A stretch of DNA of 64,000 bases from Channallabes apus (Eukaryota > Chordata > Actinopteri > Siluriformes > Clariidae): contig CM060113.1 in NCBI GenBank assembly GCA_030522415.1, positions 3,062,967-3,126,966 on the forward strand, read 5' to 3'. The notes beneath the pieces are model-generated. The model was not told the DNA's origin, made no database searches, and saw only the letters and a program-made list of their open reading frames with translations. Position numbers and translations under genes: made by a program. Numbering within the stretch: the stretch's first letter is position 1; every line of letters starts with the position of its first letter. Of the stretch, positions 1-61,115 are shown one piece after another.

Positions 1-243
1 AGATGGAAGGCAAGCCACAGAATTAGTCATAATAGTCATCAGGTGGTGATATTAACTCTTCAAATACTACACAACACTTTGGTTATGTAATGCAATTCCA
101 ATCAAAAATGTAGTGAAGCAGAAAGTACAGATAATTTCTGTAGGATGCAGTGGAGTAAAGGTAAAAAAGAATCCACTAAGAAAGTTAATCAAGTAAATAG
201 ATACATGAAACATGTACTCAAGTACAGTAAGTAAATATGCTTA
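1..243. other. Unassigned flank
   Basis: AT-rich sequence with no frame, repeat or RNA that I can recognise. It ends with the TA dinucleotide at 242-243, which is the probable target site of the next element. Confidence 0.5.
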
Positions 244-1348
244 CACTCTAAAAAATGCTGGGTTGTTTTTTCTACCCAAACGCTGGGTTGCCGCTGTTGG
301 GTCATTTTTCTGGGTTATTTACAGAGAGTTGGGTAGTTTTTGTGTAACCCAGCTGCTGGGTTGAAGTTTGCTCGGCCCCTCCCCCAAAGTTCACCGGTGG
401 ATTCAGCGGCTGTCACTCAGCTTCGTGTCTCTTGAGCTCCCACACCGCTGATGACGGTTCATCCTCCTCGGACATTTAAGGGGAAATGGCGTTAAATACA
501 AGGTCTGTATACACATGTTCATTCACCTAATTCACATATGACTGAAAAATTATTACTATATGTAACATTTATTGCTGTTACCGTGTTAAGGTTACACACA
601 AACTTTCCGGCTGGTCTGAGGTACTGGATGATAATTTAGCTGAGAATAGCTGCTAGCCACCCCACCTGTGTATGAAAGAAACGGCTAAGATGTCTGAGCT
701 TTTTAGCTTCTCTGTAGAATGTTTGCAGGGTTACGAAGATGGTGAAGTGATGAATGAATGCTAAACTGTTAACTGTAGTGTTAGCATGACGCAGGCATTT
801 AGTTAGTTTGCTAGCATTAGCAACCACTTTAGAACTTTATTAATCTCACTGCTTGAGACAATAAAATGCTGGAGTTTTACAAAACACTGACCCTCTCACA
901 AATATGCAGACCTGCTAACCCTCCCGTTTTTCACTAGCTAGTAATTTACTCTGCGGTCAAATTTCTCCTGTGTTTCTCCCAAGTTATAACAATATTTTAC
1001 ACCTTTCCCCCTTTGGCAAGTATGCAAATGTATCACCAGTAATAGCATGTAAGCTAACCAGGTCGCCATCTTTAACCAAAGTTAAATTAACTATCAGTCA
1101 GCGCGCCAACTACAGGAAAAAGTACCACAGCGGTACAGATAACTACTAGATGGAAGTATTAATATTTTGGTGATTGTAATGTACCAGTATGACACCAGCT
1201 ATGACATTTTTTCGGTAATTAGCTTAAAATCAATGCAGACTACAATATCAACTAGTCTGACATAAAGTGCTGTATCCTAAAAGTCGTGCTTATTTTGCTG
1301 TTTTATTTTTGGTAGTAGCTGTCTCCATGTTTTTGTTTTAGGTTACCT

Positions 1349-38891: not shown

Positions 38892-39605
38892 TAGTGCTAC
38901 CTGACCATGAGGTACTACCGTGCTACCTGACCATGAGGTACTACCGTGCTACCTGACCATGAGGTACTACCGTGCTACCTGACCATGAGGTACTACCGTG
39001 CTACTTGACCATGAGGTACTACCGTGCTACCTGACCATGAGGTACTACCGTGCTACCTGATCATGTTACCTCAGCATGAAAACACCCTGCCTCACCATGC
39101 ATTTGCCTCAGCATACAAAACATTTTCAGTATTCGAAGCATTTTCAGCATACGAGCGAACGGGCCGGGCCGAACCGAACCGAACCGAGCGCTGGCTGAGT
39201 CACTCGTATGTAGTCGGCCTGGGAGCTGCTCAAAACTTGTTTGCGTCTGTGGGGTTTTTTTTGCATTTTGTGCAAGATTTAGTGAAGACATAGCACCATG
39301 GGTCCCAAGAATGTTACCAAGGACGACAGGATAAAGAAAACAGAGCTTTTTTTTTTCAAAGCCAAATGAATCATAAATTAAGGTTAAATGAGCTTTAATA
39401 TCTATTTATTCCATGTTTAACTTCATTTACATGTTTTTTTTTTTTTTATTATTATAGTGTTGGAAATTGATAATATTAGTAATAGTAACAAGAAGCCTGG
39501 AATGGATTATCTGCATTTACATTATTTCCTAAGGGAAGTAATAAAAATTTTAGAATTAAAGAACCACCTCCTGAATGGATTAAATTCATATCCGAGGTAC
39601 CACTG
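38892..39605 (+). mobile_element. Pogo/Tigger-like transposon relic with expanded terminus
   Basis: The right end reads TCCGAGGTACCACTG then TA, the standard Tigger terminus. The left end TAGTGCTACCT after TA (38890-38891) is a decayed mirror of it. Inside, CAGCATACGAGCGAACGGGC and the start-like sequence ATGGGTCCCAAGAATGTTAC (39298) resemble the 5' region of a jerky/CENP-B-type transposase, but the frame ends after about 23 codons. The transposase body is deleted. Confidence 0.85.
38894..39066. repeat. 26-bp minisatellite at the Tigger terminus, 6.7 units
   Basis: The unit GTGCTACCTGACCATGAGGT plus ACTACC starts at 38894, 38920, 38946, 38972, 38998, 39024 and 39050. The units are almost identical; one has TACTTG in place of TACCTG and the last has CTGATCATG. 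Each unit starts with the transposon's terminal motif. Confidence 0.95.
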
Positions 39606-47546: not shown

Positions 47547-49425
47547 TTATAAAAATGCTTGGCTAAATAAATAGGTTTTTAGCCTAGACTTAAACACTGA
47601 GACTGTGTCTGAGTCCCGAACACTATTTGGAAGACTATTCCATAATTTTGGGGCTTTGTAAGAAAAAGCTCTGCCCCCAGCTGTAGTTTTCATAATACGC
47701 GGTACTGACAAGCAGCCTGCATCCTTTGATGGAAGTACGCGTGGCGGATCGTAAGACACTAGCAGTTCGCTCAGATACTGCGGCGCAAGACCATTTAATG
47801 CCTTATATGTCAAGAGTAGTATTTTAAAATCAATGCGAAATTTCACGGGGAGCCAATGTAGTGAAGATAGGATAGGGGTGATGTGCTCATATCTTCTGGT
47901 TCTAGTGAGGACTCTCGCTGCTGCATTCTGGACTAGCTGAAGCTTGTTTATGCACCTAACTGAACAACCAGACAGTAAGGCATTACAACAGTCCAACCTA
48001 GAAGTGATAAAAGCATGAACTAGTTTTTCTGCATCGTTTAACGACAATATATTTCTTATCTTGGCAATATTTCTGAGGTGAAAGAATGCTATCCTGGTGA
48101 TATTATCTACATGAGCTTCAAATGAAAGGCTGGAATCTATAATCACACCGAGGTCTTTTGCTGTTGCACTTGATGGAACAGAAAGGCCATCTAAAGTTAC
48201 GGTGTGATCTAAGATTTTACTCCTGTATGCGGTCCTATGACTAGAACTTCTGTCTTATCCTTAAGCAGAAGGAAGTTAATTAGCATCCAATTTCTTATGT
48301 CCTGCACACATTGCTCAAGATGGTTTTTCTTATCAGGTTTTGTTGAGACGTATAGCTGTGTGTCGTCAGCATAACAATGAAAACTAATACCATGCTTACG
48401 GATTATGTTGCCCAGAGGAAGCATGTAAAGGGAAAAAAGCAGTGGGCCTAAAACTGAACCCTGCGGAACGCCAACCTCCACTAGAGAACATGCAGAATAA
48501 TCACCATTTAAGTCTACATACTGATAACGATTGGTCAAATAGGATCTGACCCAGGAGAGGGCTGTACCCTTAATTCCTACTACATTTTCTAATCTGTGAA
48601 GAAGAATAGCATGATCAATAGTGTCAAAAGCTGCACTGAGGTCGAGTAATACAAGCATAGTTACACAACCCTGATCAGAGGCCAGTAGGAGGTCATTTAC
48701 TACTTTAACGAGTGCTGTTTCTGTGCTGTGATGAGGCATAAATCCTGACTGATACAGTTCATGTATGCCATTTCTATGTAGATATGAGTATAGCTGCTTT
48801 GCTACTATCTTTTCCAGAATCTTAGAGATAAAGGGGAGGTTTGATATTGGCCTGTAATTAGACAGCTGACAGGGGTCGAGGTCAGGTTTCTTAATTATAG
48901 GTTTGATAACTGCTAATTTAAAAGATTTTGGAACATAACCAATGCTGAGTTAGGAATTAATTATTCTCAACAGCGGTTCTGTTATTACTGGTACTGTCTG
49001 TTTAAGAAAATGTGTCGGTATAGGATCTAATATACAGGTTGATGAATTTGCAGAAGAGATGAGTGAAATTAGTTCATTCTCTTCAAGAGAAGTAAAGTAT
49101 TCTAGGTTTGAATCTGACATGGCTAGGTTAACATCTGTATCAATTACATTGTTCGGTTTCAAAGCCTCAATTTTATGCCTGATATTTACAATTTTATTAT
49201 TAAAAAAGTTCATGAAGTCCTCACTATTGCATGATGTTGTTGTGGAGATTTCTGTAGTGGTCTTATTTCTGGTTAATTTGGCTACGGTATTAAATAAAAA
49301 TCTAGGATTATTTTTATTTTCTTCTATAAGAGTGGAGAGATACGTTGATCTAGCTACACTAAGAGCTTTCCTATAGTTCAGGATGCTCTCTTTCCATGCT
49401 ATTTGAAATACTAACAATTTAGTTT
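47547..49425 (-). pseudogene. LINE ORF2, reverse transcriptase and C-terminal part
   Basis: Read from 49425 downward. After the insertion point the frame continues with KESILNYRKALSVARS. An in-frame TAA (48950-48952) interrupts the start of the RT domain. The palm follows: [19 protein letters not shown], then [11 protein letters not shown] (motif A Asp), [17 protein letters not shown] (motif B) and CYADDTQLY (catalytic YADD). Near 48200 a one-base indel shifts the frame; the other frame resumes with KDLGVIIDSSLSFEAHVD and runs to the normal end LKTYLFSQAFL. The C-terminal block with LHWLPV is typical of L2/CR1 elements. The enzyme would copy its own RNA at nicked chromosomal DNA. All catalytic residues I checked are intact, but the protein cannot be made in one piece. 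Confidence 0.93.
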
Positions 49426-49430
49426 GACGC
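49426..49430. repeat. Target-site duplication GACGC, left copy
   Basis: Matches 51623-51627 exactly; removal of the insert and one copy restores the LINE codons. Confidence 0.95.
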
Positions 49431-49595
49431 TGTAACGGTTAACCCCTAGAGGGCGCCTAATGCCCGTGTATGTTTTTGAGTTGTAGTTTTGTTTAGTTCT
49501 AGTTTCACTTCATTTCCCAGTTTGCACCTCGGTCAGGTGACGTAGAAGCTCACCTGAACCGAGGGAAGTTAATTTGATGTTTGTTTATGTTTAAT

Positions 49596-49603
49596 TATAA
49601 ATA
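49596..49603 (+). promoter_or_regulatory. LTR TATA box
   Basis: TATAAATA lies 31 bp upstream of GTCTAGCAA, the normal distance to a pol II start. The same element is in the 3' LTR at about 51431. Confidence 0.85.
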
Positions 49604-49626
49604 GCCTGGCTGGACTCCAGTGAGGC

Positions 49627-49635
49627 GTCTAGCAA
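49627..49635 (+). promoter_or_regulatory. Predicted mRNA 5' end, self-primer
   Basis: GTCTAGCAA is exactly complementary to TTGCTAGAC at 49790-49798. In Tf1/sushi elements the first bases of the mRNA fold onto the primer-binding site, are cleaved and prime cDNA. If one T is bulged, four further bases (CTGT with ACAG) can also pair. Confidence 0.65.
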
Positions 49636-49689
49636 CTGTTCAGTTACGTTTAGTTTGTGTTGGAGTGATCCTGGTTTTTGTTTTTGGAA

Positions 49690-49695
49690 AATAAA
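49690..49695 (+). terminator. LTR polyadenylation signal
   Basis: AATAAA followed 17-30 bases later by GT-containing sequence; it would end R in the 3' LTR copy (about 51525). Confidence 0.8.
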
Positions 49696-49735
49696 AGGGA
49701 CTTTGTGAAACCGTCAGCTCGCCTCATCCGCATTC

Positions 49736-51277
49736 ATGCCGCGCACACACACCCGACGCAAACACGGTAAGGGGAAGAAACGTGACAGATTGCTAGACCT
49801 AAAAAGTGGCATGGCGGAGGTTTTTCCCCTGAACAATTTTTGGGGGGGCGCTGGTACGATCTCGCCCGAGCTGGCGGAAAGGCGGAAGGACAGCGAGGAA
49901 GAGATGTTTTGCGGCTGGATTTACAGCGGGCTGGAAGACGACGAGGAGGAGATGTATCGCAGCTGGGAATACAGCTTGCTGATGGAGCAGGAGGGGCTGC
50001 TGGAGGACAGCGAGGAGCACGGCGAGATTGAGTTCTGGCAGAGCCGGGATAATTCCAGGTACGCCGAGGAGGCAGGGATGGAGGAGGTGAACGTGACGGA
50101 GAGTGAGAGGATGGCGGGACATGGCTGGAAAGGCAGCGGGTTCGCCGTCCGGCGCACGCCCTGGAGGGGTGTGACAGCCGAGGGAGAGACGGGAGAGTGC
50201 TACAGGCAGTGGGCGGAAGACAACGAGGAGCGCATCGGAGACCTGCGGGAGCAGGTGGTGCGGCTCCAACAGTTGCTCGTCCAGGTTCGGGAGAGCCAGG
50301 CTGTAGTCCCGGAGGTCCTCCCTCTCGCGGACCCGGACGACATGCTCCCCATTCCGCCACTGCCTGGGATCGGTGCAGAGAATTACGCGCCGCAGCGGGA
50401 AAGCGTCAGTCTTCCGACTCCTCCAGACTTCGAGGACGGCGCGCTAGCGTGTCAGCAGCAGCTGTCCGACGCACCCGTTCTACCGCCGCCTCCAGACTTC
50501 GAGGACAGCGTGCTAGCGTGTCAGCAGCAGCTGTCCGACGCACCCGTTCTGCCGCCACCTCTCGGCTTCGAGGACAGCGCGCTAGCGTGTCAGCAGCAGC
50601 TGTCCGAAGCACCCGTTCTACCACCGCCTGCAGACTTCGAGGACAGCGAGCCAGTGTGTGAGCAGCCGCTGTACGACGCACCTGTTCTGCCGCCGCCTTT
50701 CGGCTTCGAGGACAGCGAGCCAGCGTGTCAGCAGCCGCTGTACGACGCACCTGTTCTGCCGCCGCCTTTCGGCTTCGAGGACAGCGAGCCAGCGTGTGAG
50801 CAGCCGCTGTACGACGCACCTGTTCTGCCGCCGCCTTTCGGCTTCGAGGACAGCGAGCCAGCGTGTGAGCAGCCGCTGTACGACGCACCTGTGCTGCCGC
50901 CACCTTTCGCCTTTGAGGACGACGTAGAGCCGTCGTCAAGCGTCGTGCACGCTCCAGAGCCGTCGTCGAGCGTCGAACCAGCTCTGCAGCCGCCGAGCAC
51001 GTCTCCAGCGCGTCGGCAGCCGCCGAACACGTCTCCAGCGCGTCGGCAGCCGCCGAGCACGTCTCCAGCGCGTCGGCAGCCGCCGAGCACGTCTCCAGCG
51101 CGTCGGCAGCCGCCGAGCACGTCTCCAGCGCGTCGGCAGCCGCCGAGCACGTCTCCAGCCCCATCACCCAGCCTCCTGGACAGGAGGCGTAAGGTAGAAC
51201 ATTGGGTTGGGTGTCCGGGGCCTCCGGTGATGCTCCGGGAGGAGCATTTTTTGGAGGGGGGGTTATGTAACGGTTAA
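49736..51277 (+). CDS. Orphan repeat protein of the LTR element
   Basis: A 513-residue open frame, intact. The first ATG (49736) lies in U5 in a weak context and gives a basic leader (MPRTHTRRKHGKGKKRD); ATG 49811 (GGCATGGC) has a stronger context and would give 488 residues. Residues 25-135 are acidic and Trp-rich, with EEEM repeats. About 165-190 form a short coiled coil (RIGDLREQVVRLQQLLVQVR). About 225-400 hold eight 23-residue units (DAPVLPPPFGFEDSEPAC plus EQPLY), each with one Cys. About 420-475 hold six PPSTSPARRQ units. The stop (51275-51277) lies in the 3' LTR. I recognise no gag, CCHC or enzyme motif. A structural gag-like role is only a guess. Long antisense frames here are shadows of the repeats. 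Confidence 0.8.
   Translation: MPRTHTRRKHGKGKKRDRLLDLKSGMAEVFPLNNFWGGAGTISPELAERRKDSEEEMFCGWIYSGLEDDEEEMYRSWEYSLLMEQEGLLEDSEEHGEIEFWQSRDNSRYAEEAGMEEVNVTESERMAGHGWKGSGFAVRRTPWRGVTAEGETGECYRQWAEDNEERIGDLREQVVRLQQLLVQVRESQAVVPEVLPLADPDDMLPIPPLPGIGAENYAPQRESVSLPTPPDFEDGALACQQQLSDAPVLPPPPDFEDSVLACQQQLSDAPVLPPPLGFEDSALACQQQLSEAPVLPPPADFEDSEPVCEQPLYDAPVLPPPFGFEDSEPACQQPLYDAPVLPPPFGFEDSEPACEQPLYDAPVLPPPFGFEDSEPACEQPLYDAPVLPPPFAFEDDVEPSSSVVHAPEPSSSVEPALQPPSTSPARRQPPNTSPARRQPPSTSPARRQPPSTSPARRQPPSTSPARRQPPSTSPAPSPSLLDRRRKVEHWVGCPGPPVMLREEHFLEGGLCNG
49790..49798 (+). promoter_or_regulatory. Primer-binding site, self-primed type
   Basis: TTGCTAGAC lies 2 nt after the LTR's terminal CA. It lacks the TGG start of a tRNA-primed site. 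A two-base gap is what integrase end-trimming would require. Confidence 0.65.
50418..50925 (+). repeat. Coding 69-bp tandem repeat, about eight units
   Basis: The 23-codon unit encodes DAPVLPPPxxFEDSxxAC plus xQxLx. The last four units are almost identical, while the first four vary (PDFEDG, PDFEDSV, LGFEDSA, ADFEDSEPV), a pattern of recent expansion at the 3' side. Confidence 0.9.
50994..51160 (+). repeat. Coding 30-bp tandem repeat, about six units
   Basis: The unit CAGCCGCCGAGCACGTCTCC plus AGCGCGTCGG encodes PPSTSPARRQ and is nearly invariant, one unit having AAC in place of AGC (Asn for Ser). Confidence 0.92.
51248..51262 (+). promoter_or_regulatory. Polypurine tract
   Basis: TTTTTTGGAGGGGGGGTTA ends directly before the 3' LTR. 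This G-rich tract is the expected RNase H-resistant plus-strand primer. Confidence 0.85.
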
Positions 51278-51622
51278 CCCCTAGAGGGCGCCTAACGCCC
51301 GTGTATGTTTTTGAGTTGTAGTTTTGTTTAGTTCTAGTTTCACTTCATTTCCCAGTTTGCACCTCGGTCAGGTGACGTAGAAGCTCACCTGAACCGAGGG
51401 AAGTTAATTTGATGTTTGTTTATGTTTAATTATAAATAGCCTGGCTGGACTCCAGTGAGGCGTCTAGCAACTGTTCAGTTACGTTTAGTTTGTGTTGGAG
51501 TGATCCTGGTTTTTGTTTTTGGAAAATAAAAGGGACTTTGTGAAACCGTCAGCTCGCCTCATCCGCATTCATGCCGCGCACACACACCCGACGCAAACAC
51601 GGTAAGGGGAAGAAACGTGACA
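51266..51622 (+). repeat. 3' LTR
   Basis: Same 357-bp length as the 5' LTR and identical except at 51296 as far as I can compare by eye. It contains the functional polyadenylation site of the transcript. Confidence 0.95.
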
Positions 51623-51627
51623 GACGC

Positions 51628-52796
51628 CATTTACGCTCAAATTTCCGAGCAGTCTGTTTTAAAGTGCGCGTGTGATCGTTATACCAGGGAGCGAGTTTCT
51701 TATCTCTAATAATTTTTCTTTTATGTCCTGGAGCTACATTATCTAAGGTACAACGAAGTGTCGACTCTAAATATTTAGTCGCCTGATCGAGTTCTGTGGG
51801 ATCAGACGGTGACCTAATCGAAGTTGGTAACTCTGGGAGATTACTGATAAAACTCTGTGTGGTAGTTGATGTGAATGTACGTTTAATACGGTAGCGCGGT
51901 GCTGTGCGTACATTATCACTGTGACACACTTGAATGGAGACAAGATAGTGATCTGAGATAATTTCAGACAGTGGAATTGTGAATACATTTCTTATACTTA
52001 ATCCGAAGAATATTATTAAGTCTAAAGTGTGACCTGCTTTATGAGTGGGTCCTACTACACACTGATTTACACCTACGGAGTCCAGTATGGATATAAATGC
52101 TGTTCTCAGAGGGTCTTCTGGATTCTCAAAATGAATGTTAAAATCTCCAGCAATTAACACTTTGTCTACAGAAACGACTAGATTTGAGATGAAATCTGCA
52201 AATTCACTAAGAAATTCAGAATACGGCCCTGGAGGTCTGTAAATTATAATTAGTGGAATCGACTGAGCTGACTTAATATACTTAAATACACTTATGTTAC
52301 TATAAAGAATTTCAAATGAGTTAAATTTGTGTCGGTGTTTTTGTACGATAGACAGATTATCATTATGAATAACTGCGACGCCTCCTCCTCTACCAGTTAA
52401 CCAAGGCTGGTGTATGTAGCTGTATCCAGGAGGACTAGCTTCATTTAGAGCTACATACTCATCCTGTTTAACCCATGTTTCAGTTAAACAGAGTATATCA
52501 AACGCCTGATCTGTGATAATTTCATTAACAATAACCGCTTTTGATGCGAGAGATCTAATATTTAACAATCCTAGCTTCAGATCAGAGGTGCCGGCTGTGC
52601 ATTCAGTGTGATCGGAGTTTGTGGCCTTTATGTTAATTAAATTATTGAAACAGACTTTCTGAGTCTTTCTACATTTTTGCTTAGATCGGGGAACAGACAC
52701 AGTCTCAATAAGGTGAACCCTGAGTGACGACTCTATGCAGCTAGCAGACGGTTGGTTTAGCCTGTCTGTCTGCTCCCTGGCCTGGGCTCTGGATTG
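51628..52796 (-). pseudogene. LINE ORF2, APE-like endonuclease part
   Basis: The frame carries the apurinic endonuclease signature: LGLLNIRSL (Asn), LCLTETWV (Glu), RGGGVAVI, IIYRPPG (Tyr), IAGDFNIH (Asp/Asn), AGHTLDLI (Asp) and ISDHYLV (Asp-His). These residues form the metal-dependent site that nicks target DNA. The domain covers about residues 35-270. The frame is open from the ORF1 stop at 52797 down to the LTR insert, where it runs into LTR sequence and ends at 51549. No ATG is needed if translation continues from ORF1: the first good candidate start region lies near 52700, where the frame has GTG rather than ATG. Removal of 2,197 bp (LTR element plus one GACGC) joins this frame exactly to the RT part. 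Confidence 0.92.
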
Positions 52797-60109: not shown

Positions 60110-61115
60110 GATCCCAATGAGTGCAGTGGCCTCCATCAAGCCGTCCAGCCAAACTGAGCACCTGGAGGAGAAGGGAACATGATGGTCACTCTGAAAGAGC
60201 TCCAGTGGTTCTCTGTGGAGAGAGGAGAACCTTCCAGAAGAACAACCATCTCTGTAGCACTCCCTCATTAGGCCTGCATGGTAGAGTGGCCAGACAGAAG
60301 CCACTACTCAGTAAAAGTCACATGACAGCCCAACTGGAGTTTTCCAAAAGGCATCTGAAGGACTCTCGTACTATGAGGAACAATTGTTTTTGTTGTTGTT
60401 GAAGCACCTTTGGCACCAAAGCTACAAAATGTTTTCCTCTGGAAGGTTCTCCTCTCTCCACAGAGAAATGCTGGAGCTCTTCCAGACTGAACATCAGGTT
60501 CTTGGTCACCTCCTCAACTAAGGCCCTTCTCCCCTGATCGTCTCCTCTAGGAAGAGTCCTGGTGATTCCAAGCTTCTTCCATTTATGGATGATGGAGGCC
60601 ACTGTGCTCATCTGGACCTTCAATGCTGCAGATATTTTTCTGTACCCTTCCACAGACCTGTGCCTCGATACACTTCTGTCTGAGAGGTCTACAGACAACT
60701 CCTTGGACTTGATGGCTTGGTTTGTGCTCTGACATGCACTGTTAACTAGCTGTGGGACCTTATAAAGACAGGTGTGTGTCTTTCCAAATAATGTCCAATC
60801 AACTGAATTTACCACAGGTGGACTCCAATCAAGTTGTGGAAACATCTCAAGGATGATCAGCAGAAACAGGATGACCCTGAGCTCAATATTGAGTGTCATG
60901 GCGAAGGGGGTGAATACTTATGTACGTCATTTTTGTTTGTTTTTTATTTTTTTGTGAATTTCATCAGGTTTCAAATGAACTTCTTTCACATTGTCATTAT
61001 GGCGTATTGTTTGTAGAATTTAGAGGACAATAATGAATTTAATCCATTTTGGAATAAGGCTGTAACGTACTGTAGCAAAATGTGGAAAACGTGAAGCGCT
61101 GTGAATACGTTCTGG
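60110..61115. pseudogene. Rearranged Tc1-like transposon with inverted 5' halves
   Basis: The minus-strand frame 60899-60318 carries KSKELSVDLSDRSVSRHRSV, then YRKISAALKVQMSTVASIIH and KWKKLGITRTLPR, the N-terminal helix-turn-helix of a common fish Tc1 family. Its 5' UTR and terminus run to about 61110 (GCGCTGTGAATACGTTCTGG). On the plus strand, 60120-60380 contains an overlapping part of the same gene in the opposite direction (GAGAGGAGAACCTTCCAGAA, GAGTGGCCAGACAGAAGCCA, TTTTCCAAAAGGCATCTGAA). Both catalytic regions are missing. The result is two 5' halves facing each other, so no transposase can be produced. Confidence 0.85.

What the first reader, a model, noticed from the sequence alone, without database searches (positions are those of the whole stretch)
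49431..51622. Young LTR element without any enzyme, carrying one intact orphan repeat-protein gene
LTRs, target duplication, TATA box, polyadenylation signal and polypurine tract are all intact. Yet the 1.48-kb interior has only one frame, with no RT, integrase or protease motif. A conserved long frame in a non-autonomous element is unusual, as such elements normally lose coding capacity. Near-identical LTRs point to recent mobility. The protein may act in trans as a particle component or regulator, or simply be a fast-evolving gag.
Basis: partly seen in the sequence, partly recalled or inferred. Interest (0 to 1): 0.88.

Follow-up and report, generated by a model that had tools for sequence, protein, structure and literature searches.

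The report
Enzyme-less jumping gene with own protein
This 2.2-kb LTR retrotransposon, in what is probably a fish genome, carries no enzyme gene but one intact gene for a coil-and-proline-repeat protein, belongs to a family with hundreds of copies, and likely starts its own copying by folding back its RNA as primer, probably inside particles borrowed from a sushi-type retrotransposon.

Summary
In detail: 357-bp LTRs (1 mismatch), GACGC target duplication, TATA box, poly(A) signal, polypurine tract and one 488-codon frame, inserted in a LINE. It is no lone orphan: the LTR end plus priming site occurs 828 times in the host genome (reversed control 0), and every member sampled carries this gene or its remains; no reverse transcriptase was found in any of 28 interiors read end to end. 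The frame is kept (18 of 29 members open over 600 nt, against 0-5 in the other five frames) and replacement changes are depleted within the window's subfamily, though less between subfamilies. The protein matches no Pfam family; only one helix is modelled with confidence, so Gag identity is unsupported. New: the priming site is the reverse complement of nine bases 31 nt behind the TATA box, and both covary (29 T-type, 17 A-type, 0 crossed). That is Tf1/sushi-type self-priming. A young pol-bearing sushi-type element in the same genome shares the layout and LTR terminus, so it is the likely, untested mobiliser. Gag-only non-autonomous elements are known (zebrafish Bik-1/Bik-2); this one lacks a recognisable Gag and self-primes.

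The parts
49426..49430 (.). target-site duplication GACGC, left copy
49431..49787 (+). 5' LTR, 357 bp, TGTAACGG...CGTGACA
49596..49603 (+). TATA box TATAAATA
   Evidence: present in all 20 parsed units; function inferred
49627..49635 (+). proposed self-primer GTCTAGCAA at the expected transcript 5' end (TATA+31)
   Evidence: start site not measured
49690..49695 (+). poly(A) signal AATAAA
49788..49789 (+). GA spacer between LTR end and priming site (the two bases an integrase would trim; inferred)
49790..49798 (+). priming site TTGCTAGAC, exact reverse complement of 49627-49635
49811..51277 (+). single gene, 488 codons from the second ATG (49811) to TAA 51275-51277; an earlier in-frame ATG at 49736 would give 513
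50189..50299 (+). coiled-coil-like helix, residues 127-163 of the protein counted from ATG 49811
   Evidence: block means pLDDT 84-90 at residues 131-160; aligned over the family
50428..50920 (+). 69-bp tandem array (23-residue proline-rich unit)
   Evidence: unit number differs between near-identical copies
50986..51159 (+). 30-bp tandem array (10-residue unit)
51230..51247 (+). hairpin-like ATGCTCC/GGAGCAT just before the polypurine tract; kept in related 3' ends
   Evidence: seen by eye; not tested
51253..51262 (+). polypurine tract GGAGGGGGGG, then TTA
51266..51622 (+). 3' LTR
51623..51627 (.). target-site duplication GACGC, right copy

Best explanation
The element is a young, enzyme-less LTR retrotransposon of a family with hundreds of copies that carries its own non-enzymatic gene; it is predicted to start reverse transcription by self-priming and is likely mobilised in trans by Tf1/sushi-type elements of the same genome. 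Predicted steps: RNA starts about 31 nt behind the TATA box with GUCUAGCAA; this 5' end pairs with UUGCUAGAC just behind the LTR; a borrowed RNase H would cut it free as primer and a borrowed reverse transcriptase would copy it; a borrowed integrase would trim two bases and insert the TGT...ACA ends with a 5-bp duplication. Shown: the complementarity, its position, its covariation, the duplication, the absence of pol from the interiors read, and the kept frame. Inferred: the start site, the helper, and the protein's role. For that role my commitment is that the coil-plus-proline-rich protein acts in trans, joining the element's RNA or a helper's particle, perhaps through coil-coil contact with a helper Gag whose own N-terminus looks coil-like by eye.
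For: Element and empty site. Family: 40 scored LTR matches among 3269 candidates; 828 priming sites, 0 for the reversed control; 741 with GGCATGGCGG at the expected distance. Self-priming: nine-base match at TATA+31; 46 of 48 distinct priming sites match exactly, 29 T-type with GTCTAGCAA and 17 A-type with GTCTAGCAT, none crossed (L046 and L077 are one place, counted once); pairing probability 0.95 or more for each of the nine pairs. No enzyme: the RT piece of a sushi-type element finds no match inside any family interior among 110 loci. Coding: 18 of 29 open in frame over 600 nt against 5, 2, 1, 0, 0 in the others; 16 of 20 window-like units open for 396 codons or more; 40 replacement to 28 silent variants in 17 units, omega-like 0.39-0.53. 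Helper: a sushi-type element at G000:C6:14422750 has LTRs identical over 351 bp compared, TSD GAGAC, RT, SH3_Tf2-1 domain, terminus CATGACA as in 11 of 30 family members, the same GA spacer and an 11-base self-primer match at TATA+30; 30 places with that primer site.
Against: No pol-bearing element with this family's own primer site or LTR body was found; the LTR bodies of helper and family are unrelated and the fourth LTR base differs (TGTA versus TGTC). Between subfamilies selection looks weak: pooled pN/pS 0.74 over 91 pairs, and 1.05 in the coil block. One antisense frame shows the same depletion as the sense frame (34:34), as expected when third codon positions coincide, so codon-position bias alone does not name the strand. 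One unit with identical LTRs (L036) has a frameshift near its start, so a broken copy may move. The leader as a whole folds no better than shuffles (119 of 200 do as well), and the second duplex of a Tf1-like 'pretzel' is better than shuffles in only 8 of 20 units. Helper, start site and protein role are untested.
Confidence: 0.62

Rival explanations
1. The gene is a diverged Gag: a gag-only non-autonomous element like Bik-1/Bik-2, whose capsid has changed beyond recognition and still builds particles.
For: Position behind the primer site; a coil near the N-terminus, as reported for Bik-1 Gag (PMC10996621, passages); the precedent of gag-only families without pol.
Against: No Pfam Gag in three pieces or in 18 diverse N-termini at E 0.1, while a sushi-type Gag lying beside one member is recognised at once (PF03732, PF19259, PF16297); hhalign of the family against that Gag gives probability 0.2 percent; only one helix is modelled with confidence, on a shallow alignment, so a missed fold is possible.
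Confidence: 0.2
2. The frame is a passenger: sequence is kept for RNA-level reasons (packaging, dimerisation, hairpin and polypurine tract), and the open frame reflects GC-rich repeats and youth.
For: The 3' tail is conserved as DNA although its last codons are read in different frames (EEHFLEGG versus RRSIFGRGG); repeat regions are open in several frames; between-subfamily pN/pS 0.74 and coil block 1.05.
Against: Over the first 600 nt the sense frame is open in 18 of 29 members and the others in 0 to 5; 4 of 2000 shuffles of this part stay open; among the 19 window-like units in which the N-terminal part aligned over 598 nt or more, indels are two in-frame 6-nt deletions and two single-base insertions.
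Confidence: 0.2
3. An ordinary internally deleted gag-pol element whose remaining frame is the fused ends of gag and pol.
For: The frame runs from the primer site to the polypurine tract, as a gag-pol frame would.
Against: No member read has the undeleted form (28 interiors; no RT match); subfamilies about 36-51 percent identical share the same modules, so the gene is old within the family.
Confidence: 0.06

Closest known systems
BHIKHARI-1 and BHIKHARI-2 (Bik-1/Bik-2, crestin) of zebrafish (PMC10996621; abstract and passages seen)
   Same: LTR element, one long frame, no pol in any reference copy, recent transposition, needs a helper.
   Different: Bik encodes a Gag with a predicted capsid domain; no capsid is recognised here. 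Here a self-priming site; the passages seen say nothing of Bik's primer. Here hundreds of copies keep a primer site and gene start.
Tf1/sushi group of chromoviruses (PMC10085805, PMC4600332; passages seen)
   Same: Primer site complementary to the RNA's own 5' end; LTR ends fit the Sushi 3' motif CNTNACA (PMC3601003, passages).
   Different: No gag-pol or chromodomain; the fourth LTR base is A, not the Y of Sushi TGTYANR.
rGmr1 group of fish Ty3/gypsy elements (PMC3601003; passages seen)
   Same: LTR ends TGTAACG/CGTGACA fit TGTNANR/CGTNACA.
   Different: 11 of 30 members end CATGACA, which does not fit; the group's pol order cannot be tested without pol.
TR-GAG elements of plants (search listing only; definition recalled)
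   Same: Short non-autonomous LTR element with one gene.
   Different: TR-GAG is defined by a recognisable GAG domain, absent here.
ENS-1/ERNI of chicken (passages of PMC10996621)
   Same: Recently active element whose product is a single structural-type protein.
   Different: ERNI has a predicted capsid; no sequence comparison was made here.

Membership tests
LTR retrotransposon (any) | flanking LTRs with TG..CA ends and a fixed-length target duplication | tested here: met
   17 of 20 units with a 5-bp TSD
Non-autonomous LTR element | no RT, RNase H or integrase in the interior | tested here: met
   RT piece and chromodomain-containing piece searched; integrase core not searched separately in each interior
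Tf1/sushi group | self-priming: primer site complementary to the RNA 5' end | tested here: met
   (sequence and covariation only; start site not measured)
Tf1/sushi group | pol with chromodomain integrase | tested here: not met
   therefore not filed as a member, only as working like one
Tf1/sushi group | three-duplex 'pretzel' leader | tested here: inconclusive
   second duplex beats shuffles in 8 of 20 units
Gag-only non-autonomous ERV (Bik type) | recognisable Gag capsid domain | tested here: inconclusive
   no Pfam match; models of low confidence; no fold search run
TR-GAG | recognisable GAG domain | tested here: not met
rGmr1 group | integrase encoded before RT | not testable with these tools
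   no pol in the family
rGmr1 group | LTR ends TGTNANR and CGTNACA | tested here: inconclusive
   window fits; CGTGACA in 18, CATGACA in 11 and TGTGACA in 1 of 30 members

The most novel reading that the evidence does not exclude
A new kind of retrotransposon parasite: an enzyme-less, self-priming LTR family that has amplified to at least hundreds of copies in subfamilies by carrying its own non-Gag, coil-and-proline-repeat protein, whose fast-changing repeat tail captures the particles of sushi-type retrotransposons.
Probability: 0.35. Interest if true: 0.85.

Novelty: new variant of a known kind. Interest (0 to 1): 0.62.

Why it matters
Non-autonomous LTR elements usually have no gene, or a Gag. 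A large family that keeps a non-Gag gene while borrowing its enzymes would ask what a parasite of a parasite needs to encode. The covarying primer and priming site also give a clean sequence signature of self-priming in a non-autonomous vertebrate family, and the protein's rapid repeat change may record conflict with helper or host.

Tried and rejected
A tRNA primer site: no TGG follows the LTR end; rejected for self-priming. Gag identity: Pfam on pieces and on 18 members, PDB sequences (no match to E 1), hhalign with a sushi-type Gag: no support. Structure: two AlphaFold runs, mean pLDDT 41 and 51; too poor for a fold search, so none was run. Protein database: none for the window's protein, residues 26-235; one for a subfamily member. 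Rfam and tRNA scans of the window: nothing. Pol-bearing partner with this family's own ends: seven places from the first 100 of the 828-site list that are absent from the 741-site list, and 11 of 12 polypurine-LTR junctions on C1 and C2 without a listed priming site (pairing by eye): all 18 were again this gene family or its remains. Age: 1 of 357 LTR positions differs; no rate was applied. Literature searches (listings, PMC open-licence papers only): no listed title or abstract start describes this family, but most listed papers were not opened.

Full report
What is there. The window holds a complete 2192-bp LTR element at 49431-51622. Its two 357-bp LTRs differ at one position, it is flanked by GACGC, and the joined flanks give a LINE frame continuous over the junction, so the insertion is precise. 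The interior is 1478 bp and carries one frame, 488 codons from the ATG at 49811, ending in the 3' LTR. No Pfam family reaches its cut-off in the three pieces scanned. The frame is not chance: 0 of 300 shuffles of the whole and 4 of 2000 of the non-repeat part stay open.

It is a family. The LTR finds 40 scored matches among 3269 candidates in the host assembly of 1.165 Gb. I parsed 20 units (the window and 19 others; L033 holds two interiors between three LTRs): interiors 1202-1841 bp, 5-bp duplications in 17 of 20, identical LTRs in 5 of 20. The LTR end plus priming site, TGACAGAWTGCTAGACC, occurs 828 times, and 0 times read backwards; 741 places have the priming site followed by GGCATGGCGG. 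The first 30 of the 828 places belong to several subfamilies. Twenty-eight interiors were seen from end to end: the 20 units, four extended ones (L058, L060, L068, L075) and four short ones where an LTR start motif lies within 1.5 kb (L051, L053, L055, L065). The RT piece of a sushi-type element finds no match inside a family interior; its one match apart from itself, in L030, lies in the flank outside the LTR.

The frame is kept. From the second ATG, 16 of 20 window-like units are open for 396 codons or more; L036, L038 and L049 break early and L047 is diverged. Of the 30 priming-site members, 15 are open for at least 420 codons within the stretch held, 3 for 275-323, 11 for fewer than 200 and 1 lacks the ATG. 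Over the first 600 nt, 18 of 29 are open in this frame, against 5, 2, 1, 0 and 0 in the other five. In 17 units there are 40 replacement and 28 silent variants (omega-like 0.39-0.53, P 0.0002 to 0.008 for kappa 1 to 4); the frames +1, +2 and two antisense frames show no depletion, while the antisense frame whose third positions coincide shows the same depletion. Between subfamilies the constraint is weaker: pooled pN/pS 0.74 over 91 pairs and 1.05 in the coil block, pairwise ratios 0.29-0.78 in the 16 pairs printed. Repeat-unit numbers change between near-identical copies, and 16 of 20 interiors differ from the window's (itself counted) by multiples of three; one of the exceptions, L046, had its LTR boundary shifted by my parse.

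The protein. Subfamilies are 36-51 percent identical to the window's protein over the N-terminal part, apart from two close members at 94-95 percent, with two helix types, then proline-rich repeats, then a tail VEHWVGCPGPPVML that is kept in the 3' ends seen (some copies altered). None of 18 members matches a Pfam family with a meaningful score; the best E-value at the 0.1 threshold is 0.037. AlphaFold models only a helix at 127-163 with confidence. One named relative exists in the protein database: a predicted receptor-like gene model of the catfish Clarias gariepinus whose C-terminal part is 35-37 percent identical to this family, which is why I call the host probably a fish; the host itself is unnamed.

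Self-priming. Behind the LTR there is no tRNA-type site. The bases TTGCTAGAC, two nucleotides from the LTR end, are the exact reverse complement of GTCTAGCAA, 31 nt behind the TATA box, where a transcript would start. As background, 25 of 1438 interior 20-mers have a match of nine or more anywhere in the LTR, and 13 of 1438 in the 40 nt around the expected start. Across 48 distinct priming sites, 46 match exactly: 29 with T pair with GTCTAGCAA and 17 with A pair with GTCTAGCAT, none crossed; L071 and L078 have one other base changed. These are sequences, not independent events, and self-priming itself would copy the primer into the site, so the covariation is what the mechanism predicts. Each of the nine pairs has probability 0.95 or more, but the leader as a whole is no more stable than shuffles and the second 'pretzel' duplex is supported in only 8 of 20 units. 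Self-priming and the pretzel are described for Tf1/sushi elements in PMC4600332 and PMC10085805 (passages).

The likely helper. SH3_Tf2-1, a domain of this group (naming by Pfam; group link recalled), has 8234 candidates and 150 scored matches, many in frames of 1156-1157 codons. One such element at C6:14422750 has LTRs identical over the 351 bp compared, TSD GAGAC, an RT (PF00078, E 1.6e-30) and, by eye, a chromodomain. Behind its LTR end CATGACA stands GA and then a site matching 11 bases at TATA+30: the same layout as in the family, where 11 of 30 members also end CATGACA. Its primer site occurs 30 times, 20 of them with a listed SH3_Tf2-1 match 2.9-4.1 kb downstream (pairing by eye). Its LTR body is unrelated to the family's, so it is a candidate by architecture, not by descent.

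Verdict. Gag-only non-autonomous elements with recent activity are known: Bik-1 and Bik-2 lack pol, yet encode a predicted capsid (PMC10996621, abstract and passages). What is new here is a large enzyme-less family with a non-recognisable, repeat-tailed protein and a covarying self-priming site. Its protein's role in trans is inferred.

Noticed in passing
window 47547-52796, - strand: The element sits inside a LINE with an endonuclease domain (PF03372) and RT-like frames; the LINE frame is continuous over the joined empty site.
   Followed up: partly
P0002 (Clarias gariepinus): A predicted four-transmembrane receptor-like protein ends in a stretch of this element family's protein: an exonised copy or an annotation artefact.
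   Followed up: partly
L033: Three LTRs and two interiors in tandem, sharing the middle LTR, as unequal recombination would give.
   Followed up: no
L086 nt 3-713 (- strand): A sushi-type Gag (PF03732, PF19259, PF16297) lies beyond the 3' LTR of a family member: a neighbouring element.
   Followed up: partly
L097-L107 and window 51230-51265: The last codons are read in two frames in different copies (one-base difference before the polypurine tract), while the DNA with a hairpin-like repeat is kept; suggests a cis-acting element overlapping the gene's end.
   Followed up: no
window 60318-60917, - strand: A frame that looks by eye like a decayed Tc1-type transposase; not searched.
   Followed up: no
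window 38894-39065: A 26-bp tandem repeat, 6.6 copies, 97 percent matches.
   Followed up: no
G000:C2:1065244 to 1069799: By the listed places one member would be about 4.5 kb between priming site and polypurine tract, longer than any read here; not fetched.
   Followed up: no
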